Assembly (NCBI GenBank): GCA_028282645.1
Contig: JANQHM010000176.1
Coordinates: forward strand, 1-36,077
Direction: 5' to 3'
From: Candidatus Gastranaerophilales bacterium
Lineage (GTDB): Bacteria > Cyanobacteriota > Vampirovibrionia > Gastranaerophilales > JANQFW01
Length of the DNA: 36,077 bases
A program made the position numbers and the translations under genes. Positions within the stretch are counted from its first letter, which is position 1. Each line of letters starts with the position of its first letter. The notes under the pieces were generated by a model. It was not told where the DNA came from. It searched no databases and saw only the letters and a program-made list of their open reading frames with translations. This document shows, in pieces, positions 7,263 to 31,196 of the stretch.

Positions 7263-8942
7263 TTATGGCTTGATCCCAGTCCTTTCATTGATGTTATTAG
7301 TGCCGTTTGGTTTATCTTTATAATCAGACGAGTCAGTAGTATTCATAGGGTCAGTAGTATCATTAAGGTCATCAGGGTCAATAGAATCAGGTGGCATTTT
7401 TTCTGGTGGAAGTTGATCAACAACCTCAACCGGTTTTTCGTATGCTTTAGGGTCAATTACACATATATTATTTTCTTTTTTTCCATTGAGAGAATCGCAT
7501 AGGGCATCGTTATTATAACTACCTGTAAATATTTCAAAGAAGTTACCTTCTAAATATACTTCTATTTTTTTTGCAATATCATCTTTAACTTCTTGACTTA
7601 TATTTGGGTCATTATAAATTTCTTCTAATTTTTCTTTTATAGCTTTTAATTTAATAATATTGTTCGTTGTTGTATCAGGGTTAGTAATAATATTATATCC
7701 GTTGTTTATAACATCATAGGTACAGCCCCATCCTGTAGTATTACATGTACCTTCATGTTCTGTACCCGGAGCCCCCATTGGGGTTATTCCTGTTGCTGTA
7801 ATTTCGAACCCGAAAAAGTCAACCCCCATATTCTTGTCCTCAAAACTATCTACCGGTCCATTAGTTACCCATAAATTATAACTGCCAGAAGTATTTTTTG
7901 AACCTAGGTACATTTCTTGTCCGTTTGCAAATTTAAACCAACCATTCCATAATTCTTGTGTTATGGACATACTACGCGAGTCCTTTTGTTTTACTGTAAA
8001 AGGAGTGTCATAGCTGGCCTTATCCTCTATATAGGAAACAAGATCAAACTCTTTTTCATCTAAGTAATCCCTAAGTATACGATCAAAGAAATCTTTTTCA
8101 TTAATATCTATTGAACCATCTTTATCGATGATGGTTGCAGAAAGCAGCTGTAACCTATCCCAGCCTTGGATAAAAGTTGTTGTGTCTATACTATCGGCTG
8201 ATGATTCTTCTGGTAAAGATTCAACAATCTCAACAATTTCTTCTAATATTGTTTCTCTACTGTCGATTGTATAAGTAAGCTGTTCACCCATTTTAAGTAA
8301 ATCTTTTGTATAAGTTTTTAACAAACTTTTTTCCGGACCTTCTGGTAGTTGATTAAGAATCTTATTTAACTCTGTATATAAATCTTTTGCAACATCACCT
8401 TCTTTTTTTAAATCTACTGCAATATCCAGATCGTTAATTACTTTAAGCAATGGATCATTTTTTCCACTAACAGTGGCTTCGTCTTTTAGTATGTATTCGT
8501 CTATTGTGTCATTATATATTTTTAGTGCCTGATCTAATCCTGAAGTATGAATATTAGTAGTTTCAGTTATTTTTTGAATTTGAGCAATATATTTTTTGGC
8601 AATATAAGCAAGGTCTTTCATGTTACCGGCGGAACCGTTAGTTTCAATTAACTTTCCACCACCTGAGCTACTTCTTATATAGGCTTCAATAGGTGTTTTT
8701 AAAACCTGGCCGCTAAGAGTTAATTCAGTATTTGTTAATAAACTGGGACTTACTTTGGGAATATCAGCTCTACTGGAATTTGATTCAAACATAGCTAATT
8801 TGCCTTTATCCTGGAATATATTTGAAATGTTATCACCAAAGAGAGCAAAAGAAAAAAATCCGACCAAAAGCACCCCTGCGGTAATTAGGCCTATTTCTGC
8901 AGGAGTGGAGCCGTTTTTGTACTTAAAGTTTTTAATACACAT
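7263..8942 (-). CDS. Large Flp/type IV pilin-like secreted protein (paralogue 1)
   Basis: A 559-residue protein with a pilin-type N-terminus: a short basic leader (KNFKYKNG), a processing site G|STPAE with Glu at +5, and a ~20-residue hydrophobic helix (IGLITAGVLLVGFFSFALFG) ending DNISNIF as in Flp pilins. A prepilin peptidase would be expected to cut after the Gly. Unlike 50-60-residue Flp pilins it carries a ~530-residue extracellular part. This is helical at first. Around residues 330-410 comes a pilin-fold-like segment (WFKFANGQEMYLGSK, GVDFFGFEITATGITPMG, CNTTGWGCTY), then a Cys pair (ALCDSL and NICVIDP) and a Pro/Asp/Thr-rich tail. Ribosome binding site AAGGAT. It is the downstream member of a tandem duplication. 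It could be a minor pilin, adhesin or surface filament subunit. No assembly ATPase or peptidase is nearby. Confidence 0.75.
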   Translation of the reverse strand: MCIKNFKYKNGSTPAEIGLITAGVLLVGFFSFALFGDNISNIFQDKGKLAMFESNSSRADIPKVSPSLLTNTELTLSGQVLKTPIEAYIRSSSGGGKLIETNGSAGNMKDLAYIAKKYIAQIQKITETTNIHTSGLDQALKIYNDTIDEYILKDEATVSGKNDPLLKVINDLDIAVDLKKEGDVAKDLYTELNKILNQLPEGPEKSLLKTYTKDLLKMGEQLTYTIDSRETILEEIVEIVESLPEESSADSIDTTTFIQGWDRLQLLSATIIDKDGSIDINEKDFFDRILRDYLDEKEFDLVSYIEDKASYDTPFTVKQKDSRSMSITQELWNGWFKFANGQEMYLGSKNTSGSYNLWVTNGPVDSFEDKNMGVDFFGFEITATGITPMGAPGTEHEGTCNTTGWGCTYDVINNGYNIITNPDTTTNNIIKLKAIKEKLEEIYNDPNISQEVKDDIAKKIEVYLEGNFFEIFTGSYNNDALCDSLNGKKENNICVIDPKAYEKPVEVVDQLPPEKMPPDSIDPDDLNDTTDPMNTTDSSDYKDKPNGTNNINERTGIKP

Positions 8943-8969
8943 AATATAATCCTTTTCATTATCATGTTT

Positions 8970-8990
8970 CTATAGTTTATATTCCCAAAA
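8970..8990 (-). promoter_or_regulatory. Conserved promoter-proximal box of pilin-like gene 1
   Basis: A 21 bp stretch (minus strand GGGAATATAAACTATAG at its centre) is identical to one upstream of the paralogue at 11069-11089, at a similar distance from the start codon (~28 bases). Surrounding bases are less conserved, apart from a shared A/T-rich block. It probably holds the -10 region or a regulator site. Which one cannot be decided here. Confidence 0.55.
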
Positions 8991-9081
8991 ATTTGATTTT
9001 TTAAACATTTTTTTTGATTAAATTAACAAAATGTTACCTGAGTATAAAATTAATATATGTATTGCAAATAAATAAATAATA

Positions 9082-9121
9082 AAAACAAAAGACAGGGACC
9101 TATTCCTGTTCCTGTCTTTTG
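9082..9121 (-). terminator. Intrinsic terminator of the second pilin-like gene
   Basis: Reading the minus strand, GCAAAAGACAGGAACAGG pairs with CCTGTCTTTTG, allowing a small bulge, and is followed by a T-rich run. The hairpin is nearly the same as the one at 7184. The flanking bases are also alike (TTTGATTAAATTAACAAAA upstream in both), so the terminator was copied with the gene. Confidence 0.82.
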
Positions 9122-9136
9122 CAGTTATAAGTAATT

Positions 9137-11041
9137 TTATTGTGAAGCCTGTATATTAATATTTACATTATTCTTGTCATTGTTGTTTGGATTAACGGTA
9201 GAGTCAGGAGCAATATTTGTACTATCATTAGGATTAATTGGTTTCACACTAGTTGTATCAATAATCTCTGGTGGCATTATATCGATAACAGGTGGCGAAT
9301 TAATAATATCTGTGGGCGGAGTATCAATAGGCTTGCTATAAACATTAGGGTCAATAACACATTTGTTATTTTCTATAGTTCCCTGCAAGGTACTACATAA
9401 GGCATCGTTATTGTAACTGCCTTTAAATACTTCAAAGAAATTACCTTCCAAATATACTTTTATTTTTTTAGCAAGATCTTCTTTTGTTTCTTGAGCAATA
9501 TTTGGATCATTATAAATTTCTTCTAATTTTTCCTTTAATTTTATTAAATTTTGATATTTAAGAAGTGTTGTACTTGTACTACTGAATGTATTGTTGTTGG
9601 ATAATTTAGCCATGTCACTGGTACATCCATATCCGGTAGTGTTACATGTACCCTCATATTGTGATCCCGGATCTCCCATAGAAATTATACCTGTTGGAGT
9701 TACTTCAAATCCAAATAAGTCGGTTCCGATAGTCATAGGGTCAGTAGATGCAGTCAATGTTACCCAAAGTTTATGATAGCCGGTAACAGGATCTTTTGTA
9801 CCTACAAACATTTCTTGTCCGTTTGAAAATTTAAACCAGCCATTATATGTTTCTGTCGAACCGGTGAATATTTGAATATAACTGCTGCTGCTACTACTGC
9901 TTGATGATGATGAACTTGAACTGCTAGAGCTTGCACTGCTTGATGATGAGCTTGAACCGTTACCTGAGCTGCTTGCACTGGCACTACAAGCAGTTGTGGT
10001 ATTTATATCTACAATATCTCCACTTGCGCTTGCAATACAGCCGTTTGTAGCTCCATATGCATATATTGATGACTCTACAAGATCAAATTCTGATCCGGTT
10101 AAGTAATTTTTTAGATAGTCATATGCGTAGTCTGGAGGCGTAATTGTAACTTCAGTAGCTATAATAGTATCAGATAACAAGTTTAACCTGCCTATACCTT
10201 GTCCAAAAATATTAGTAAGGCTAGTGTTAACTAGTGTAGAAGAAGATGGGGTTGTATCATTTAAAGCAGGGTCAGTATTGGCACCGGTTGTAGTAGTGTC
10301 TTGAGCAGTATCATTTATAACTAGCTCAATTATTTCTTCATAAAGCAGTTGTTTGTTTCTGCTATCTACAAAATAAGTAATCTGTTTGCCCATATTTAGT
10401 AAATCATTTACATATGTTTTTAAAATAAATTTTTCCGAACTATCAGGTAATTGATTAAGGGTACTATCCAATTCTTTTGATAAAATTTTTGCGGCATCAC
10501 CTTCCTGTGCCAGGTCTATAGCAAAATCCAGTTCATTAATTATTTTAATCAGAGGATCTTTTGTACCGCTAACTATTGAATCATCTTTTGCTATATATTC
10601 ATCAACAATATTATTAAATGACTTTAATGCATTATCCAGACCCGAAGTATCAGCATTAACTCTTTTAGAGTTTTCTTGAATTTGAACTATATAATTTTTT
10701 GCAATATAAGCAAGGTCTTTCATGTTACCTGCAGATCCGTTTGTTTCAATTAAATTGCCTCCTCTGGAAGTACTTCTTATATATGCTTCGACAGGAGTTT
10801 GCAAAGACTGATTATTTAAAAATACTTCAGTGTTTGATAATAAATTGGGGTTAACATTAGGAATGGAAGCTCTGCCTGAATTAGATTCAAACATTACTAA
10901 ACTGCCATTATCTCGAAAAATTTCTCCAATGCTACCACCAAAGAGGGAATAAGCAAAAAAGCTTACTAAAAAAATTCCGGCTGTAATTATACCAATTTCA
11001 CCTATGTTGGAGCCTTTTTTGCAGTTAAAGTTATTACGCAT
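9137..11041 (-). CDS. Large Flp/type IV pilin-like secreted protein (paralogue 2, poly-Ser)
   Basis: Paralogue of the 7263 gene, 634 residues. It has the same leader and processing site (CKKG|SNIGE), hydrophobic helix (IGIITAGIFLVSFFAYSLFGG), helical middle (ETNGSAGNMKDLAYIAK is shared) and C-terminal module (WFKFSNGQEMFVGTK, GTDLFGFEVTPTGIISMGDPG, CNTTGYGCTSD, ALCSTLQ...CVIDP). The tail is Pro/Asn/Thr-rich. It differs mainly by an insertion of about 60 residues before the conserved module. That insertion has a Cys pair (GCIASAS...TTACSAS) and then a run of about 25 serines broken by single Ala or Gly-Asn-Gly. Such tracts act as flexible, often glycosylated linkers in surface proteins; that role here is inference. 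Ribosome binding site AAGGAT. Confidence 0.75.
   Translation of the reverse strand: MRNNFNCKKGSNIGEIGIITAGIFLVSFFAYSLFGGSIGEIFRDNGSLVMFESNSGRASIPNVNPNLLSNTEVFLNNQSLQTPVEAYIRSTSRGGNLIETNGSAGNMKDLAYIAKNYIVQIQENSKRVNADTSGLDNALKSFNNIVDEYIAKDDSIVSGTKDPLIKIINELDFAIDLAQEGDAAKILSKELDSTLNQLPDSSEKFILKTYVNDLLNMGKQITYFVDSRNKQLLYEEIIELVINDTAQDTTTTGANTDPALNDTTPSSSTLVNTSLTNIFGQGIGRLNLLSDTIIATEVTITPPDYAYDYLKNYLTGSEFDLVESSIYAYGATNGCIASASGDIVDINTTTACSASASSSGNGSSSSSSSASSSSSSSSSSSSSSSSSYIQIFTGSTETYNGWFKFSNGQEMFVGTKDPVTGYHKLWVTLTASTDPMTIGTDLFGFEVTPTGIISMGDPGSQYEGTCNTTGYGCTSDMAKLSNNNTFSSTSTTLLKYQNLIKLKEKLEEIYNDPNIAQETKEDLAKKIKVYLEGNFFEVFKGSYNNDALCSTLQGTIENNKCVIDPNVYSKPIDTPPTDIINSPPVIDIMPPEIIDTTSVKPINPNDSTNIAPDSTVNPNNNDKNNVNINIQASQ
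9881..9957 (-). repeat. Poly-serine coding tract in pilin-like paralogue 2
   Basis: The run uses AGC, AGT, TCA and TCT codons in mixed order, not one repeated triplet. It is therefore not a young slippage microsatellite, and the serine content is probably kept by selection. The paralogue lacks it. Confidence 0.85.
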
Positions 11042-11241: not shown

Positions 11242-11280
11242 ATGAGGATTATTTTTGTATATATGTGTATGTCTTTTTAC

Positions 11281-11375
11281 TACTGGTACTCAATTAAATT
11301 TCAAATTATAGAATGAGCCTGTACACTTTTTAACGCTCCTGCTTCGCTATTCAGAATTTAGCCTATTTTATCAGC
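11281..11375 (-). repeat. 3'-flank repeat R1, copy A
   Basis: On the minus strand it reads GCTGATAAAATAG, then AGCGAAGCAGGAGCGTTAAA, and ends GAAATTTAATTGAGTACC. The order and sequence of blocks match the copies at 14741 and 16930. It begins 62 bases after the stop of the 11437 gene, in the same orientation, and is followed by the hairpin at 11182-11241. Confidence 0.8.
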
Positions 11376-11436
11376 TATTTACTCGATTGAATAAAAAGTA
11401 TTTAAGTATAAATAACATTCAAATGTTTTTGATTAA

Positions 11437-14672: not shown

Positions 14673-14889
14673 TAATAAACAAAGGCTATTCATTTTATAC
14701 TAATTCAAAAATAATTTTCAGATTATTTAATAGTGTTAAAGCTGATAAAATAAGCTATTCGTCTGAATTGCGAAGCGGGAGCGTTAAAAAGTGAAATGGT
14801 CAATTTTACTTTTTATAAGCTCATTTAAAGAGAAATCTGAAATTTAATTGAGGACCAGTATAATTAATGAATGGCTTTTGTTTTTATTA
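14673..14889. repeat. ~215 bp segment bounded by imperfect inverted repeats
   Basis: ACAAAGGCTATTCATT at 14679-14694 pairs with AATGAATGGCTTTTGT at 14866-14881. The arm extends to over 20 bases with a 2-base bulge. The two internal mismatches become G-U pairs in the plus-strand RNA. The segment encloses R1 copy B. It could be a miniature element or a structured 3' UTR. Confidence 0.55.
14741..14862 (+). repeat. 3'-flank repeat R1, copy B
   Basis: Contains GCTGATAAAATAAGC, then TTGCGAAGCGGGAGCGTTAA, then AAATCTGAAATTTAATTGAG. Starts ~90 bases after the stop of the 14184 gene, in the same orientation. It is longer than copy C because of a 40-base insert (AAATGGTCAATTTTAC...) that shares GCTCATT with copy A. 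Confidence 0.82.
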
Positions 14890-15422: not shown

Positions 15423-15635
15423 ATGATAAAAAGTTTTTATTTTAGTAAAAACTTTGATTTCTGAATTTGCCTGATTTTGTTAATACTTTTTTAATTGTAA
15501 AAAAAAATTAAGTTTTAGATATATTTTTTTAATAATAGCAATTTTTTTTTGTGTTCTTGTTTTAATATAATCGAAAAGGGAAAAATAAATTTATGATAAT
15601 ATAGACAAATTTTGTTCGGAGGTTATAACATAAAA

Positions 15636-16913
15636 ATGGTTACTATTGAAAAACCACCTGTAAGAGAGAGAGCATCAAATGACGATGTATCCGAGGGGAT
15701 TGAAGTGCTAGATTTGCAGGACAAAAAAATTGTTACAAAAAAAAATTTGCATCGTATTGATATAAGCGAGCTGCCAAGCAAGCTGCCAGACTTTGATGAT
15801 TCAAATGAAACAAAGGATAATATTCTTGCAAACTGGTTAATAGAATGGATTGAAGAATCATTCAAGAAAGGAAAAGTTCATGTAAATGAATTATTACCAA
15901 AGAAAAATGTCCTTGCTGCTCATTTAGGAATTAGTATAGGCACTGTTCAAACAGCTATCCGTTATATTGAAGACAAAGGTTACGTTGAATCAAAACAAAG
16001 AATTGGTACCTTTATACGTGATTATACGCAGCCGGTTGCCCAATTAAGAAAGCAAACCTCTAAAAGAGAGCAAGCAGTTCTTGCCTTAAAGAAAATTATT
16101 ATTACAAATGGTTATAATATTGATGAGCCTCTTCCTTCATCAAGAGAACTGGCTAAAATAATTGGAAGTGCACCTAATACAACTTGCTTGGCTTTAGAAT
16201 ACTTAGCCAGTAATGGTATTCTTGAATCTAAAGGCTCTAGGGGGAATAAAGCCAACTGGGTGTTAAAACAAATTCCTGCATTCAATAAAGAAAAATTAGC
16301 AACTGATGTAGTATTAGATTCTGATACGTTAGTTGATCAAGTGGAAAGAGATTTAAAAGAATTAATAAATAAAAGATACGAAGTAAATGATAAGCTTCCC
16401 TCTCATTTTGAATTAGCTGAAATACTTAAAGTAAGTATAAAAACTGTTCACGATGCAATGAAAAGATTAGTGGCTCAGAATATTTTAAGATCAAAACGAG
16501 GACGCTACGGTACTTATATCTTAAGAATGCCTTCTGATTTACAAACTGCTTCGGGCAAAGAAAATGCTATATTTGCCCCGGCAGAGGATGCCAGCTTGTA
16601 TAACTACGAAAAAATAGAATGCCATTTAAAAGTACTAATTAAAGAAAATTACAAAGTTGGTGATAAATTACCTGCAATGGGCAAACTGGCCGGTGAATTA
16701 AATGTAAGCAGCAATACAATAAGAAAAGCTCTTCAAAGATTATCTGATGATAACATCGTTAAATTTTCCAGAGGAAGATACGGCGGTACATTTGTTACAC
16801 AGATACCCTTGGAGTCTTTTGAAGATTTAACACAGTTTACTTGGCTGGCAGTTAACCAAGAACATATGTCCGCTTATAGTAATGGTATATCAAGTAATGA
16901 CGATTCTAGGTAA
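15636..16913 (+). CDS. Transcriptional regulator with four tandem GntR-type winged helices
   Basis: I start it at the ATG at 15636, because GGAGG at 15618-15622 would lie inside the longer TTG-started frame. The 425-residue product is almost entirely four GntR-like DNA-binding domains, at about 62-129, 142-212, 231-297 and 322-388. Each has a helix pair, an LPS-like turn (LLPKKNVLAAHLGIS, PLPSSRELAKIIG, KLPSHFELAEILKVS, KLPAMGKLAGELNVS) and a wing ending GTFI, ANWV, GTYI or GTFV. No effector-binding domain (FadR-C, UTRA or aminotransferase) is present, whereas ordinary GntR proteins have one winged helix plus such a domain. Domains 3 and 4 share RGRYGxT(Y/F). It would bind an extended or multipartite site. 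The R1 repeat and a terminator follow, so it is its own transcription unit. Targets are unknown. Confidence 0.85.
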   Translation: MVTIEKPPVRERASNDDVSEGIEVLDLQDKKIVTKKNLHRIDISELPSKLPDFDDSNETKDNILANWLIEWIEESFKKGKVHVNELLPKKNVLAAHLGISIGTVQTAIRYIEDKGYVESKQRIGTFIRDYTQPVAQLRKQTSKREQAVLALKKIIITNGYNIDEPLPSSRELAKIIGSAPNTTCLALEYLASNGILESKGSRGNKANWVLKQIPAFNKEKLATDVVLDSDTLVDQVERDLKELINKRYEVNDKLPSHFELAEILKVSIKTVHDAMKRLVAQNILRSKRGRYGTYILRMPSDLQTASGKENAIFAPAEDASLYNYEKIECHLKVLIKENYKVGDKLPAMGKLAGELNVSSNTIRKALQRLSDDNIVKFSRGRYGGTFVTQIPLESFEDLTQFTWLAVNQEHMSAYSNGISSNDDSR

Positions 16914-16929
16914 ACTTAAATCAGGTAAA

Positions 16930-17012
16930 AACTAATAGAATAAACTATTTTTTGAATTGCGAAGCGGGAGCCTTAAAAAGTGAAGTCTGAAATTTAATTG
17001 AGTACCTGTATA
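16930..17012 (+). repeat. 3'-flank repeat R1, copy C
   Basis: Contains TTGCGAAGCGGGAGCCTTAA directly joined to AAGTCTGAAATTTAATTGAG, lacking the middle insert of copy B. It starts within 20 bases of the stop of the quadruple-GntR gene, in the same orientation, and is followed by the terminator at 17027. Confidence 0.82.
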
Positions 17013-17026
17013 AAACATCCGAATGA

Positions 17027-17079
17027 AATAATAAAAAAAGAAACCGATTAGTAATAAACCGGCTTCTTTTTTTATTATT
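17027..17079 (+). terminator. Intrinsic terminator of the quadruple-GntR gene
   Basis: AATAATAAAAAAAGAA pairs perfectly with TTCTTTTTTTATTATT, and the stem continues with CCG/CGG at the top after one mismatch. The T-tract is inside the stem. It separates this gene from the histidine kinase. Confidence 0.8.
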
Positions 17080-17171: not shown

Positions 17172-19511
17172 ATGGTTAAAGCATATTTGTATCGAAAAAA
17201 ACGCTATCCGAGTTTGTATAAAAAGCTTTTGCCGGAAGCTGAACTTATAAAGAAAAAAGAATCTTTACTGAGAAGAATAAGTAAAAAATTTTCAGAAAAT
17301 TATAATTTAAAAGAAGTTGTAAAAATATTATCTGAAGAAGTGTCCAGGGAATTTGACTTTGAAAACCTGGTTTTTCTGGAGCTTTTTCCCAGGTTTGAAG
17401 GCAAAGTAAGAATCAAGAGTGAATATGAAAATTTTGCATCAGTTAATGGTGATAAAATTATAAATCTGAATGCGGATGATTTTCAGCTGCTAAGTGAAAC
17501 TATTTTTAAAGATCAGCCAAGTTTAATAATTGATAGTATAAATAATAGTAAATTTTCAAAACAGTTTAAAAATAGTTGCAGAAAGCAGGGGATAAACTTT
17601 GCAGCTTTTTTCCCGGTAAGAAGTAAAAATGAAATATGGGGTCTTATTGTATTTACAGGCAAGTCTTACAGATATCTTTATCCGCCTTTAGTTGAACTGT
17701 TAAAGGGCTTATCTGATGAAATGTTTTTAATGATAAAAAATGCAAAACTTCTTACAACTTGCGAAGCTTTGTTTGAAAGGGAAAGTATTCTTAAAAATAT
17801 AACTAATAAAACTCTTAGTTGCAAAAATCTTACTTACGCACTAAATAGCATATCAGAAGAAATAGCTAGGATTTTTGATATTGATACTGTGGCTATAAGG
17901 CTTTTTGATAAGACATTGATGACTTTTTCCGATACACTTGGAGAATATCGACGAAGTGAAGATATACCTTCAGTAAAAGGAAAATTTTTGAATAAAAAAA
18001 ATCTTAATGACTTTATATGGAATAAACTTTTTATAAATTATGAATCTATAATTGTAGATGACATAAATAAAGCAGACCTCCCCGAAAACATAAAGAACAG
18101 TCTGTTGGATCTGAATGTTAGGTCTGCTGTTTTCTTTCCTATTTTGTATAAAGAAGAGCCCATGGCAACTATTTTCCTTGCAAATACCAGAGAAACTTAC
18201 CCTATTAGAAAAGACTTGTATGAGTTTTTGATACCTATTGCCAATCAACTGGCTGTTTGTATAAACTTATTTGAGGCTAATGAAAAGTTAACGCAGTCAC
18301 TTGCTGTTGAAAAAACTACAAAAGAATTGATATTTAAGTTAAAGGAAGATGATCATCATGACAAAATTTTTAGCTCATTTTTACAGCCTTCTCTGGAATT
18401 ATTTGATGTAGAAAGAAGTATGCATTTGCACTTTGATAGAGACCAAAATATACTTGTAAATCTCGAAGATTTAAAGAATCCTGCTTTTACAAAACTTTTA
18501 AATAAACAGATTCTTGATTCAAATAATACTATAGAATTTATATTAAACAGTAAAAAAAATATATGGGCAGTTAATAATGTTGAAACTGATATAAACAATG
18601 AAAAACTTAAAGAATTTCTGCTCGCAAATAATATTAAAGCTTTTCTTGCACATTATAATGCTTGTATTTGTGAAGAATGTTATGCCCCGGCATTAGAAAA
18701 ATTTAATAAATATGCAGTTAATCTTATTTGTTCTTCAACACCCAGAATTTGGCATTCTTCTGAAATAGAAAGCTTTAGGCTTATAGCCGAGACCATTACA
18801 CTGATTTACAGGCAAATGTCTCAAAGAAAAGAGATTGAATATACTAAGAAAACTTTTCTTGCTACCCTTACTCATGATTTGAGAAGTCCCATAATGGGTG
18901 AACAAAAAGCTCTTGAATATATAATTGCTAAAAAACCCGAAACTTCTTTAAGCAGCTTTGTTGAATTTTTGCAGGATATGTATTATACAAACCAAGATTT
19001 GCTTAATATAGTAAATAACATACTTATGGTTTATCATTATGAGTCAGGCCAAATAGATTTAAATATCAGCAGAGCAGAAATTAAGGATATAATAGATGCT
19101 TCTGTCCGTTCTGTTCAACACCTTGCAAAAGAAAAACAGACAATAATAAATGTAAAATACGAAGATACGATTTCTTTGGTCAGGTTGGATAAAAATCAGA
19201 TATCTAGAATTCTTACGAATTTGATAAGTAATGCTGTAAAACATAATCCTCCAGGTATAAATATAGATATTGAAGTTAAAAAATCAGATAATGATATACG
19301 TTTCTCTGTAATAGATAGCGGCAAGGGAATACCTGAGGAAAATAGAGAATGTATTTTTAACAAATATCCTACCCGCAAAGGGCAAATAGGTACAGGACTC
19401 GGGTTGTATCTTTCAAAGCAAATTGTTGAAGCTCATAACGGTAAAATATGGTTTAAAACACAAGAAGGTAAAGGTACAGGCTTTACTTTCAGCATACCTT
19501 TGAACCTATAA
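17172..19511 (+). CDS. GAF-domain sensor histidine kinase next to kaiBC
   Basis: A 779-residue soluble kinase without membrane helices. After a short basic N-terminus come two clear GAF-like sensory domains (about 30-185 and 195-345). A third, more divergent one lies at about 365-540 and has a CICEEC cluster. Then come the HisKA dimerisation helix with the H-box (LTHDLRSP, His568) and the HATPase domain with N-box (ILTNLISNAVKHN), G1 (DSGKGIPEE) and G2 (GTGLGLYLSKQIVEAHNG). The GAF-plus-kinase layout recalls CikA, but there is no C-terminal pseudo-receiver and no KaiB-like domain as in SasA. Its position 180 bases upstream of kaiB suggests a role as input or output kinase of the Kai module; that is inference. 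No response regulator is in the window. The ribosome binding site is weak. Confidence 0.88.
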   Translation: MVKAYLYRKKRYPSLYKKLLPEAELIKKKESLLRRISKKFSENYNLKEVVKILSEEVSREFDFENLVFLELFPRFEGKVRIKSEYENFASVNGDKIINLNADDFQLLSETIFKDQPSLIIDSINNSKFSKQFKNSCRKQGINFAAFFPVRSKNEIWGLIVFTGKSYRYLYPPLVELLKGLSDEMFLMIKNAKLLTTCEALFERESILKNITNKTLSCKNLTYALNSISEEIARIFDIDTVAIRLFDKTLMTFSDTLGEYRRSEDIPSVKGKFLNKKNLNDFIWNKLFINYESIIVDDINKADLPENIKNSLLDLNVRSAVFFPILYKEEPMATIFLANTRETYPIRKDLYEFLIPIANQLAVCINLFEANEKLTQSLAVEKTTKELIFKLKEDDHHDKIFSSFLQPSLELFDVERSMHLHFDRDQNILVNLEDLKNPAFTKLLNKQILDSNNTIEFILNSKKNIWAVNNVETDINNEKLKEFLLANNIKAFLAHYNACICEECYAPALEKFNKYAVNLICSSTPRIWHSSEIESFRLIAETITLIYRQMSQRKEIEYTKKTFLATLTHDLRSPIMGEQKALEYIIAKKPETSLSSFVEFLQDMYYTNQDLLNIVNNILMVYHYESGQIDLNISRAEIKDIIDASVRSVQHLAKEKQTIINVKYEDTISLVRLDKNQISRILTNLISNAVKHNPPGINIDIEVKKSDNDIRFSVIDSGKGIPEENRECIFNKYPTRKGQIGTGLGLYLSKQIVEAHNGKIWFKTQEGKGTGFTFSIPLNL

Positions 19512-19584
19512 TATATTTTTAAAAATTTTTATTATTTATTTTAAATTTATTAAAAGCCTTTTGGGGAATATATTCAAAATTAAA

Positions 19585-19671
19585 ACACCTTAAAATTGTT
19601 ATAAGTATTATAAGCTCTACTGGTATACTTTAAATTTATTTAGAAACATCAGAACTCGATATACAATACTT
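19585..19671 (+). repeat. Possible decayed copy of miniature element R2
   Basis: ACACCTTAAAAT..., TAAGCTCTACTGGTATACTT and AACATCAGAACTCGATAT resemble, in the same order, the interior of the R2 copies at 32782 and 26969. The terminal GGT...ACC motifs are no longer recognisable. It lies directly upstream of kaiB and could therefore contain or disturb its promoter. Confidence 0.3.
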
Positions 19672-19691
19672 AGGAAAAAATTAAAAAAATT

Positions 19692-19967
19692 ATGAACAAG
19701 AAATACATATTTAAACTTTTTATATACGGGCAATCTGATGATTGTAAAAATGCAATAAAAAACCTGACAAAAATATGTGAAGAAAAACTTCACGATAATT
19801 ATGATTTAAAAGTTATAGATATTAAAGAAGCTCCTGAAGAGGCGGAAGAAGAAAGATTGATCGCAGTTCCAACGCTCATAAGGGAATTGCCTGCACCCGA
19901 GAGAAGGATAATAGGCAACTTTAAAGACAAGGATAAGGTTCTGGCAGCTTTAGATCTTACTGAATAA
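19692..19967 (+). CDS. kaiB: Circadian-clock-type protein KaiB
   Basis: At 91 residues it is near the usual KaiB length. It has the thioredoxin-like start (YIFKLFIYGQSDDCKNAIKNL) and the KaiB core (YDLKVIDIKEAPEEAEEERLIAVPTLIRELPAPERRIIGNFKDKDKVLAALDL). In cyanobacteria KaiB switches fold to bind phosphorylated KaiC and drive its dephosphorylation phase. The residues around the fold-switching C-terminal half (VPTLIRELPxPERRIIG) are close to those of clock KaiB. The kaiC start follows 19 bases downstream, so the two are co-transcribed. No clear ribosome binding site precedes the ATG. KaiB homologues also exist outside clocks, in stress responses, so a rhythm is not implied. Confidence 0.93.
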   Translation: MNKKYIFKLFIYGQSDDCKNAIKNLTKICEEKLHDNYDLKVIDIKEAPEEAEEERLIAVPTLIRELPAPERRIIGNFKDKDKVLAALDLTE

Positions 19968-19986
19968 TTGCAAAAAGAGGTTAACT

Positions 19987-21528
19987 ATGGAAAAAACATA
20001 TTTTAGTGCAGCCGAAAATGAAGTAAAAAAGGTAAAAACTCATATAGAAGGATTTGATCAAATATCACGAGGAGGAATTCCATATCAAAGAAATACATTG
20101 ATTGCAGGTACATCCGGTTGCGGGAAAACTATTTTTGCAATGCAGTTTTTGGCTAATGGTATTACTTGTGATAATGAAAATGCAGTTTTTGTAACTTTTG
20201 AAGAGCCACCAAAAAACATAATTGAAAATATGAGGTCTTTTAACTGGGATATAAAAAAATGGGAAGAAAAAGGAGAATTTATTTTTGTTGATGCTTCTGT
20301 AGCTCATGAGCCGGTACCAACCGGAGAATATAGTTTAATAGCTCTATTAACTCGTATTGAAAATGCAATTAAAAAAGTTAATGCAACTAGAGTGGCCATA
20401 GACTCGCTAGGCTCTCTATTATATCAATTTCAGAATGATAGAATTATCAGACGTGAGTTGATTGTACTGGTAAACAGATTAAAACAGCTCAACGTAACAG
20501 TAGTCATGACTGCAGAAAGAGTAAGTGAATACGGTGAAATTTCAAGATATGGCATCGAAGAGTTTGTTTCTGATAATGTAATTATTTTAAGAAATAATAT
20601 TATCGAGGAAAAAAGGCGTAGAACCGTTGAAATATTAAAATATAGAGGAGCCTTTCATCAAAAAGGTGAATATCCTTTTACTATTCTTCCCAGAAAGGGA
20701 ATAGTAGGAACTTCTCTGACTACACTTAAAATGAATCAGCCGGTATCTGCAAAGCGTATTACATCAGGTGATAAAAAACTTGATAAAATGTGTAACGGAG
20801 GCTTTCTAAGCGGATCAATCGTTTTAATCTCGGGAGCTACAGGAACAGGAAAAACACTCTTGGTTACAGAATTTTTAAAAGGTGGTGTAGAGGCAGATGA
20901 AAAAAGCTTATTATTTGCATTTGAAGAAAGTAAGGAGCAAATTGTCCGCAATGCCAACGGATGGAGCGTTGACTTTAATAAGATGGAAAAAACCAATAAG
21001 TTAAAAATAATTGCTTTATACCCGGAAGTTTTAAACCTTGAAGAACATCTTATTGAAATTAAAACACATATTGAGAATTTTAAACCACAAAGAATAGCAA
21101 TAGATAGTTTATCCGCATTGGAAAGAATGTCATCTCCTACAAGTATTACAGAATTTGTAATAGGGCTGACTTCTTTTATTAAGGAGAAACAAATTAGCGC
21201 AATGATAACTATCAGTGCACCGACAATTATGGGTGCAGGAACTATAACGAGTGCTCATATTTCAACAATTACCGATTCAATAATTCTTTTAAGATATTTG
21301 GAACATAGAGGGTGCGTAAAACGTGGAATTACAATATTAAAAATGCGCGGTTCTTTCCATGACAGAGAAATAAGGGAGTTTTCAATAGATGATAAAGGTA
21401 TACATATTAAAAAGCCTTTCAAAAACATCCAGGGCATTTTAAGTGGCCATCCGGTTGAATACATGTATGAAGTTGTTGTTAATGAAAAAGGTATTTCTAA
21501 GGAAATTTCCAATGTTCTGGATAACTAA
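19987..21528 (+). CDS. kaiC: Circadian-clock-type ATPase/kinase KaiC
   Basis: 513 residues with two RecA-like halves, as in full-length clock KaiC. CI has Walker A GTSGCGKT (41-48) and catalytic Glu pair FEEPP (72-73). CII has GATGTGKT (283-290) and FEESKEQ (313-314). The autophosphorylation region GTITSAHISTITDSIILL keeps the Ser-Thr pair (S426-T427, equivalent to S431/T432 of Synechococcus) and the Thr equivalent to T426. The C-terminal tail (ILSGHPVEYMYEVVVNEKG...) differs from the typical KaiA-binding A-loop region, and no kaiA lies here. AGAGG lies 7 bases before the start. Expected activity: slow ATP hydrolysis with autokinase and autophosphatase activity in a hexamer, controlled by KaiB and perhaps the upstream kinase. 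Confidence 0.95.
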   Translation: MEKTYFSAAENEVKKVKTHIEGFDQISRGGIPYQRNTLIAGTSGCGKTIFAMQFLANGITCDNENAVFVTFEEPPKNIIENMRSFNWDIKKWEEKGEFIFVDASVAHEPVPTGEYSLIALLTRIENAIKKVNATRVAIDSLGSLLYQFQNDRIIRRELIVLVNRLKQLNVTVVMTAERVSEYGEISRYGIEEFVSDNVIILRNNIIEEKRRRTVEILKYRGAFHQKGEYPFTILPRKGIVGTSLTTLKMNQPVSAKRITSGDKKLDKMCNGGFLSGSIVLISGATGTGKTLLVTEFLKGGVEADEKSLLFAFEESKEQIVRNANGWSVDFNKMEKTNKLKIIALYPEVLNLEEHLIEIKTHIENFKPQRIAIDSLSALERMSSPTSITEFVIGLTSFIKEKQISAMITISAPTIMGAGTITSAHISTITDSIILLRYLEHRGCVKRGITILKMRGSFHDREIREFSIDDKGIHIKKPFKNIQGILSGHPVEYMYEVVVNEKGISKEISNVLDN

Positions 21529-29846: not shown

Positions 29847-31196
29847 ATGAGAATAAAAAGTATTGAAGTAGAAAATTTTAAGAACTTTGAGCAGGAGCGC
29901 GTTGAGTTTGATGATTTTAATGTGTTTGTCGGGGCTAATGCTGCGGGGAAATCTAATTTTGTCAATTTAATTAAATTTTTTAAAAATATAAATGAAAAGG
30001 GTTTAAAGAAAGCTATCGGTGAGCTTGGTGGGTATAAGTATTTTAAAAATATTAATTGCCCTGATAAGCCATTTAGATTTCGTATAGAGTTTGATTATGA
30101 GAAAGAGTTAAAGTTATATGAAAAATTTTTTGTAGATAGTGATGTTATAATAATTTATATCCAAAATTTTATTTACGAATTTGTCATAGATATAAAAGAT
30201 GAAAAAATTTATATTATAGATGATAAATTAAACGTTAAAGGTCAATCTAAAAAACTGTATCTAGCAACTAGTGATATAAAAAAATATGCTGATCAACATG
30301 ATATAGATATGAGTAAAGCCATAGACATTGCAACTTTTAATCCATCAATCATTAAGGGAGATACAAAACCAGATGACTTTAGTATAAATGTATTAAGTAA
30401 AGATTTAAAAGCAATAGACTCTACTCAAAAAGACATTGATGTAAAATTTGAGGCTCCAGATTATCTTAAGAAAGATTACTTCATTCCCGTTATAAATCAA
30501 AGTACTGAAAAAGGAAAGCTTATTTTAGAGTCAGACTATTTTGATAGGTTAATTAGAAGGTTAAAGCCTTTTAAAGTAAACTTATATGACTTTAACCCTA
30601 AAAAGGCCGTAAGACAATGCACTATATACGATGAAAACTTACTGGAAGAAGACGGCAGCAACTTGCCAATGGCAATAAAAAATATTTTAAAAGATGAGAA
30701 AAAGAAAAATAAGTTTCATAACCTCGTAAGCTATGCACTACCATTTATAGAAAGCATTGATACTCTTGAACTGCCTTACGACAATATTTTCTTTGAAGTA
30801 AAAGAAAAATCATCAGGCAAAACGTTTCTGGCAAATGTGCTGTCCGACGGGACAATAAATATAATAGCAATAATCGTAGCACTGTTCTTTGAAGATAATG
30901 ACGTAGTTGCACTGGAAGAGCCGGAAAGATTTATACACCCAAGCTTGATATCAAGCGTAGTAAGTCTGTTAAACGACGTAGCAGGCGCAAAGCAAATTAT
31001 TGTATCAACTCATAACTCCGAAGTAGTAAGATACTCAGGAGCTGAGCGGTTGCTTTTGGTATCCAGAGACAAAAACGACACGTCTAAAATCACTCGCCCC
31101 GCAGAAAGCGAAAACTTAAAAGTGCTCCTTGAAAATGATTTAGGAGTAGCGGATCTATTTGTTGATAATATGTTGGAAGGGCTGGACAAGTGTTAG
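29847..31196 (+). CDS. OLD/AbiLi-like AAA ATPase (RecF/SMC-type)
   Basis: 449 residues with the split ABC-type ATPase layout: N-terminal MRIKSIEVENFKNFEQ, Walker A VGANAAGKSN (28-37), a long middle insert (about 90-290), then signature-like LSDGTINIIAII, Walker B VVALEEPERFIHP and the H-loop IIVSTHNSEVV. No Toprim nuclease domain is fused. Such AAA_21 proteins commonly sit in two-gene defence units with a Toprim/DUF4276- or RloB-type partner encoded immediately downstream. Here the downstream frame starts with a GTG overlapping the stop but is broken. A defence role (AbiL/RloA-like) is inference. It could also be a housekeeping repair ATPase. Ribosome binding site AAAGGTAG. Confidence 0.82.
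   Translation: MRIKSIEVENFKNFEQERVEFDDFNVFVGANAAGKSNFVNLIKFFKNINEKGLKKAIGELGGYKYFKNINCPDKPFRFRIEFDYEKELKLYEKFFVDSDVIIIYIQNFIYEFVIDIKDEKIYIIDDKLNVKGQSKKLYLATSDIKKYADQHDIDMSKAIDIATFNPSIIKGDTKPDDFSINVLSKDLKAIDSTQKDIDVKFEAPDYLKKDYFIPVINQSTEKGKLILESDYFDRLIRRLKPFKVNLYDFNPKKAVRQCTIYDENLLEEDGSNLPMAIKNILKDEKKKNKFHNLVSYALPFIESIDTLELPYDNIFFEVKEKSSGKTFLANVLSDGTINIIAIIVALFFEDNDVVALEEPERFIHPSLISSVVSLLNDVAGAKQIIVSTHNSEVVRYSGAERLLLVSRDKNDTSKITRPAESENLKVLLENDLGVADLFVDNMLEGLDKC

What the first reader, a model, noticed from the sequence alone, without database searches (positions are those of the whole stretch)
17172..21528. KaiB-KaiC module with a GAF sensor kinase but no KaiA in an apparently non-photosynthetic relative of Cyanobacteria
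The sequence shows full-length KaiC with both Walker A sites, both catalytic Glu pairs and the S426-T427 phosphosite pair (plus the preceding Thr), a KaiB 19 bp upstream, and a three-GAF histidine kinase before them. In Synechococcus, KaiC phosphorylation at this Ser/Thr pair is the clock state variable. If the host is a non-phototroph, the module may be an hourglass timer or stress switch rather than a light-set clock. The kinase lacks both the SasA KaiB-like domain and the CikA pseudo-receiver, so it would be a new type of Kai-linked kinase if it interacts.
Basis: partly seen in the sequence, partly recalled or inferred. Interest (0 to 1): 0.85.

Follow-up and report, generated by a model that had tools for sequence, protein, structure and literature searches.

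The report
KaiBC-kinase module in dark cyanobacterial relative
A non-photosynthetic cousin of cyanobacteria carries the core KaiB and KaiC clock proteins next to a sensor kinase but has no detectable KaiA, an arrangement already known from other bacteria, probably a simple one-shot timer rather than a full daily clock.

Summary
The genes are real: a 779-aa histidine kinase (HK), kaiB and kaiC lie co-directionally at 17172-21528, with intact KaiC catalytic sites and T421/S426/T427. One detail is too strong: only two GAF domains are supported, not three. The host belongs to a two-species genus of Gastranaerophilales (Vampirovibrionia), without detectable KaiA, KaiA3, SasA or reaction-centre genes. 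HK-KaiB-KaiC is syntenic in the congener. KaiC is absent from the other 144 genomes (39 other genera) sampled in the order. KaiC is closest by identity and marker residues to the KaiA-independent KaiC3 type (57-59%; 48-52% to KaiC1), but the tree does not settle its position. A kinase beside kaiBC is not new: it is published for non-cyanobacteria, and seen here in Obscuribacterales, Anaerolineae and Cereibacter. This kinase differs: relatives at 33-41% identity without kai are membrane-anchored 4HB/HAMP-GAF kinases, whereas this one is soluble, lies upstream, and carries a CxCxxC insertion they lack. An RpaA-like regulator exists but is universal in the kai-less relatives. Best reading: a KaiA-less, ATP/ADP-sensing hourglass with a kinase partner. 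The kinase-Kai interaction is inferred, not shown.

The parts
17172..19511 (+). Soluble sensor histidine kinase, 779 aa: GAF1 (weak, res 46-180), GAF2 (res 223-364), unassigned region 375-548, HisKA (559-622, LTHDLRSP with H568), HATPase (673-778)
   Evidence: syntenic in congener at 78% identity
18663..18680 (+). Codons for C498-I-C500-E-E-C503 (CxCxxC) in an insertion of the third sensor region, kept as CICPDC in the congener and absent from six homologous kai-unlinked kinases
19692..19967 (+). kaiB (91 aa); lacks the C-terminal tail of KaiB1 and has Ala (A86) at the S. elongatus G88 position
19987..21528 (+). kaiC (513 aa, two KaiC domains), KaiC3-like by identity and marker residues; no KaiA-binding tail of KaiC1 and no ~50-aa coiled-coil tail of KaiC2
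20107..20130 (+). KaiC CI Walker A GTSGCGKT
20833..20856 (+). KaiC CII Walker A GATGTGKT
21247..21267 (+). KaiC phospho-site segment T421...S426-T427 (S. elongatus T426, S431, T432)
17027..17079 (.). Hairpin with T-run between the 4xGntR gene and the kinase: probable (bidirectional) terminator; the congener has a fully paired version with changed base pairs
15612..16913 (+). Upstream neighbour: regulator with four GntR-type winged helices, 89% identical and syntenic in the congener; probably a separate transcription unit

Best explanation
A KaiA-less KaiB-KaiC timer with a dedicated soluble histidine kinase. KaiC forms a hexamer that autophosphorylates at S426/T427 without KaiA, because it lacks the KaiA-dependent A-loop and tail, at a rate set by the ATP/ADP ratio. 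KaiB switches fold, binds the CI ring and promotes return to the unphosphorylated state. The result is an hourglass restarted by each energy or redox shift, not a self-sustained oscillator. The adjacent kinase reads the KaiB/KaiC state, or feeds redox or metabolic signals in through its GAF and Cys-rich sensor region, and passes phosphate to a response regulator encoded elsewhere, possibly the RpaA-like one. Shown here: gene content, residues, synteny and absences. Inferred: hourglass behaviour, kinase-Kai interaction, redox input and regulator partner.
For: Intact KaiC catalytic and phospho-sites. No KaiA in G000 and no KaiA3 in G000 or G001. The C-terminus lacks the KaiA-binding segment; 36 KaiC3-type against 16 KaiC1-type residues at 81 diagnostic columns. 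KaiC3 proteins phosphorylate without KaiA (PMC5520375). A KaiBC-only system works as an hourglass driven by ATP/ADP (PMC10076222). HK, kaiB and kaiC are syntenic in the congener, with KaiC 91% and HK 78%. Kinases flank kaiBC in independent lineages. Homologous kinases without kai are membrane-anchored, this one is soluble. No terminator-like site was called on the + strand between HK and kaiB.
Against: No expression, interaction or phosphorylation data. The kinase is less conserved than KaiC (78 against 91%), and 180 bp separate HK from kaiB, so kaiBC may have its own promoter. Two congeners are a small sample for conserved synteny. R. sphaeroides KaiC relies on a C-terminal coiled coil for stability that this KaiC lacks. 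The tree position of KaiC is weak (83/75; AU does not reject grouping with KaiC1 or Obscuribacterales).
Confidence: 0.45

Rival explanations
1. The kinase is only a neighbour. KaiBC is its own transcription unit and acts alone or with unlinked partners; the GAF kinase belongs to a locally expanded Gastranaerophilales kinase family that happens to lie upstream.
For: The closest kinases (33-41% identity) are in kai-less genera and the genome has 19 matches to this kinase; 180-bp gap before kaiB; the kinase diverges faster than kaiC; it lies upstream whereas Obscuribacterales kinases lie downstream and are PAS type.
Against: Synteny is kept in the congener although the genes just upstream of the GntR regulator diverge; kinases recur beside kaiBC in unrelated lineages; this kinase lacks the membrane module of its homologues.
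Confidence: 0.3
2. KaiBC is a stress or metabolic-state switch rather than a timer: KaiC phosphorylation simply reports ATP/ADP or redox state and the kinase adjusts stress genes.
For: The reviewed literature links a non-cyanobacterial KaiC (KaiC2 of Legionella) to stress response (PMC5520375); no light or clock-input genes were identified here; KaiB carries Ala at the G88 position, a change reported to favour the fold-switched form in S. elongatus KaiB, which would shorten any delay.
Against: The cited stress example is KaiC2, a different subgroup (35-38% identity here); a KaiBC-only system can keep hourglass time (PMC10076222).
Confidence: 0.2
3. A genuine self-sustained oscillator with an unrecognised KaiA substitute, for example the kinase itself acting on KaiC.
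For: All KaiC sites needed for ordered phosphorylation are present; KaiA3 shows that KaiA function can hide in a response-regulator-like protein (PMC11372060); kaiA-less Synechococcus keeps a damped rhythm that needs SasA (PMC7205874).
Against: No KaiA or KaiA3 domain found in the genome; KaiA-binding tail absent.
Confidence: 0.05

Closest known systems
KaiB-KaiC-histidine kinase clusters of non-cyanobacterial bacteria (R. sphaeroides KaiBC-HK; first kaiC context of De Luca et al. 2011, PMC3164672)
   Same: kaiBC without kaiA, next to a histidine kinase lacking SasA-type KaiB and CikA-type receiver domains
   Different: Kinase upstream rather than immediately downstream; GAF-type and soluble with a CxCxxC insertion; R. 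sphaeroides uses KaiC2 with a coiled-coil tail and an HWE kinase
Cyanobacterial KaiA3-KaiB3-KaiC3 system (Synechocystis; PMC11372060)
   Same: KaiC 57-59% identical, more KaiC3- than KaiC1-type marker residues, same S-T phospho-sites, kaiB directly before kaiC
   Different: No KaiA3 detected; a kinase sits where kaiA3 usually lies; KaiC branch is long and its grouping with KaiC3 only weakly supported
kaiB-kaiC-PAS kinase loci of Obscuribacterales (same class)
   Same: Non-photosynthetic Vampirovibrionia with kaiBC and an adjacent kinase
   Different: Kinase downstream and PAS type; KaiC 52-54% identical; two of them carry a KaiA3-like gene nearby
Synechococcus KaiABC-SasA/CikA-RpaA clock
   Same: KaiC phospho-sites, Walker and catalytic motifs; an RpaA-like regulator exists in the genome
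   Different: No KaiA, SasA or CikA-type kinase beside kaiBC; the RpaA-like regulator is universal in kai-less relatives

Membership tests
KaiC (double-domain, circadian type) | Two KaiC ATPase domains scoring above TIGR02655 and NF006799 cut-offs | tested here: met
   574.4 against 546.25 and 655.6 against 408 bits
KaiC (double-domain, circadian type) | Walker A and EE in CI and CII, T426/S431/T432 equivalents | tested here: met
KaiB | KaiB domain PF07689 above cut-off | tested here: met
   86.8 against 27 bits; it falls short of the cyanobacterial equivalog TIGR02654 (74.9 against 145.3)
KaiC3 subgroup | Groups with KaiC3 in a tree with good support | tested here: inconclusive
   With KaiC3, Anaerolineae KaiC and L137 at 83/75; AU does not reject own+KaiC1 (p 0.249) or own+Obscuribacterales (p 0.117); 36 against 16 marker residues favour KaiC3 over KaiC1
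KaiC3 subgroup | KaiA3 gene present with kaiB3/kaiC3 | tested here: not met
   KaiA3 C-domain profile: no match in G000 or G001
KaiABC oscillator | KaiA present | tested here: not met
   PF07688 none in G000; MAG is 96.8% complete
KaiABC oscillator | Self-sustained KaiC phosphorylation rhythm | not testable with these tools
   needs purified proteins
SasA | N-terminal KaiB-like domain on the kinase | tested here: not met
   P0001 has no PF07689 match; kaiB is the genome's only PF07689 match
CikA | C-terminal pseudo-receiver after the kinase core | tested here: not met
   Protein ends at the HATPase domain (673-778 of 779)
KaiBC-HK cluster of non-cyanobacteria | Histidine kinase gene beside kaiBC, no kaiA | tested here: met
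KaiBC-HK cluster of non-cyanobacteria | Kinase functionally coupled to KaiBC | not testable with these tools
   needs binding or phosphotransfer assays

The most novel reading that the evidence does not exclude
A redox-set KaiBC timer in a dark-living cyanobacterial relative: a membrane GAF kinase lost its membrane module, gained a Cys-cluster sensor and was recruited to KaiBC, so that redox change rather than light sets and reads the timer.
Probability: 0.12. Interest if true: 0.7.

Novelty: new member of a known kind. Interest (0 to 1): 0.4.

Why it matters
Vampirovibrionia are a non-photosynthetic lineage related to cyanobacteria, so their Kai genes bear on whether the cyanobacterial clock was built on an older light-independent timer or whether Kai genes moved in later. 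Here KaiC is patchy (2 of 146 sampled Gastranaerophilales, one genus of 40) and not clearly sister to Obscuribacterales KaiC, which leans towards horizontal gain but does not prove it. The locus gives a compact three-protein system in which a KaiA-free timer and a non-SasA, non-CikA kinase could be tested directly.

Tried and rejected
Fold of the kinase with a two-sequence alignment: pLDDT 34, unusable, so no fold search was run. PF07688 match in G065: two in-frame stops, just over the cut-off (24.9 against 22.2 bits), probably chance. ARAGORN tRNA-Ile at 20603-20692 on the minus strand lies inside kaiC and is taken as a false call. RpaA-like regulator as Kai-specific output: rejected as evidence, since it is present in 59 of 60 genomes of the order sample, nearly all kai-less. 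Window KaiC as a KaiC1 nested among cyanobacterial clock KaiC: not seen, since KaiC1 is one clade at 100/99 without it. KaiC2: rejected (35-38% identity, separate clade 100/100). A GntR gene beside the homologous kinases: no match in the stretches held, only in the two congeners. PDB sequence searches with sensor regions 1 and 3 gave nothing firm.
Full report
WHAT IS THERE. Three co-directional genes occupy 17172-21528: a 779-aa histidine kinase, kaiB (91 aa) and kaiC (513 aa), with 180 bp between kinase and kaiB and 19 bp between kaiB and kaiC. KaiC exceeds the curated cut-offs for circadian-type KaiC (TIGR02655 574.4 against 546.25; NF006799 655.6 against 408). It keeps both Walker A motifs, both Glu pairs, and T421, S426 and T427, the equivalents of S. 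elongatus T426, S431 and T432. KaiB passes PF07689 but scores well under the cyanobacterial KaiB equivalog. The kinase has HisKA and HATPase domains, one clear GAF (223-364) and one weak GAF (46-180) that is firm in a homologue. The third sensor region is not recognised as GAF, so 'three GAF' is only partly confirmed. It ends at the HATPase domain and has neither a KaiB-like nor a receiver domain.

HOST. The window lies in G000 (3.1 Mb, 96.8% complete). The single congener held, G001, has a contig of the same length (55205) as JANQFW010000027.1, 'Candidatus Gastranaerophilales bacterium isolate PL23b_bin.2'. No photosystem reaction-centre protein is found in G000 (PF00124). The host is therefore a Vampirovibrionia (Melainabacteria) member and, as far as tested, not a phototroph.

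KAI PARTNERS. Own-genome searches find one PF07689 domain, the kaiB itself, so no SasA, and no KaiA (PF07688). Because the best cyanobacterial matches proved to be KaiC3-like, and their partner KaiA3 is only weakly seen by the KaiA model (E 0.033), I built a profile from the C-terminal domains of five cyanobacterial KaiA3 genes plus two related proteins of Obscuribacterales. It has no match in G000 or G001. An RpaA-like response regulator is present (L169, 56% to a presumed cyanobacterial RpaA, 38% to RpaB; the RpaB reference is confirmed by NCBIfam, the RpaA one rests on my recognition of the sequence). It has 61-92% counterparts across the order in genomes without kaiC, so it is not evidence of a Kai output pathway.

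DISTRIBUTION AND DESCENT. KaiC occurs in 2 of 146 sampled genomes of the order, both in this genus, one of 40 genera. The congener keeps the whole block: GntR regulator 89%, kinase 78%, kaiB 84%, kaiC 91%. By identity KaiC is nearest to KaiC3-type proteins of cyanobacteria (57-59%, five with kaiA3-kaiB3-kaiC3 order) and to an Anaerolineae KaiC (57%), then KaiC1 (48-52%) and KaiC2 (35-38%). In the tree it joins Anaerolineae and KaiC3 with weak support (83/75), outside a KaiC1 clade of 100/99. The AU test does not reject grouping with KaiC1 (p 0.249) or with Obscuribacterales (p 0.117). Marker residues favour KaiC3 over KaiC1, 36 against 16 of 81. Horizontal gain by this genus is the simpler reading of such a patchy distribution, but repeated loss is not excluded, and other phyla were thinly sampled.

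THE KINASE. Its best relatives are other Gastranaerophilales kinases at 33-41% identity in genomes without kaiC. Those examined are about 1070-1170 aa and start with membrane modules (4HB/HAMP or other) followed by GAF domains. The window kinase and its congener copy have no transmembrane-like stretch. They alone carry C498-x-C500-x-x-C503 in an insertion of the third sensor region; six homologues lack it. So a membrane GAF kinase appears to have become a soluble one beside kaiBC. That is suggestive, not proof, of recruitment. A kinase beside kaiBC is itself ordinary. De Luca et al. report that nearly all non-cyanobacterial kaiC-kaiB clusters have a histidine kinase or GGDEF/EAL protein immediately downstream (PMC3164672). 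R. sphaeroides has kaiC-kaiB-HWE kinase. Aquisphaera has an 'ATP-binding protein' gene directly before kaiBC, whose domains I did not check. The Obscuribacterales loci have kaiB-kaiC-PAS kinase, and the Anaerolineae contig has kinases on both sides. Position and sensor type differ from case to case, so these associations look repeatedly evolved.

MECHANISM. The C-terminus of this KaiC lacks the KaiA-binding segment of KaiC1 and the coiled-coil tail of KaiC2. KaiC3 proteins phosphorylate without KaiA (PMC5520375), and a KaiBC-only system from R. sphaeroides works as an ATP/ADP-driven hourglass (PMC10076222). I therefore favour a KaiA-less hourglass whose state the kinase reads or modulates. KaiB has Ala at the position of S. 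elongatus G88, and G88A is cited as favouring the fold-switched form (PMC12618002), which would make KaiB binding quicker; this is a lead only. Transcription: a hairpin with T-run separates the GntR gene from the kinase, with changed pairs in the congener, and no terminator-like site was called on the + strand between kinase and kaiB. Kinase-kaiB-kaiC may be one unit, but a kaiBC promoter in the 180-bp gap is possible.

VERDICT. Real genes, correctly read in essentials. The claim of a new type of Kai-linked kinase is overstated in kind but has a specific kernel (soluble GAF kinase, Cys cluster, upstream position). I found no paper in the held open-licence library that describes kaiBC in this class, which is weak evidence of absence. 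Known kind of system, new host genus, untested mechanism.

Noticed in passing
L081:12194-13042 and L083:576-1412: In two Obscuribacterales-like genomes a receiver + KaiA3-like C-terminal domain protein is encoded close to and divergent from kaiB-kaiC; in L081 it follows a phytochrome-type kinase (PAS_2-GAF-PHY). Possible KaiA3-type system in non-photosynthetic relatives; L083 also weakly matches RsbU_N, so assignment is open.
   Followed up: partly
L202-L206 (G083, G088, G092, G079, G064; family f12): KaiA3-profile matches (E 1e-35 to 1e-12) in open frames of 301-1188 aa in genomes where no full-length KaiC was listed; may be RsbU_N-like domains.
   Followed up: no
window 11276-11379 (-), 14764-14863 (+), 16927-17013 (+): Three copies of an intergenic repeat holding TTGCGAAGCGGGAGC and TCTGAAATTTAATTGAG; the core motif is not expected by chance; much of the copy before the kinase gene is missing in the congener, so it may be mobile.
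   Followed up: partly
window 15612-16913: A 433-aa protein with four GntR-type winged-helix domains, 89% conserved in the congener, directly upstream of the module; unusual architecture, function unknown.
   Followed up: no
window 29847-31196: AAA ATPase of the AbiEii/OLD-like group matching many PADLOC defence models (best HEC-01A, 6e-46).
   Followed up: no
L137 (G348): A cyanobacterium with kaiB-kaiC flanked by long proteins with kinase-like matches on both sides and a very divergent KaiC (branch 1.29), besides its kaiABC.
   Followed up: no
window 7263-11041: Two large proteins (559 and 634 aa) without Pfam or NCBIfam match; relatives of the first occur in two copies in the congener, and it has no PDB sequence match.
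   Followed up: no
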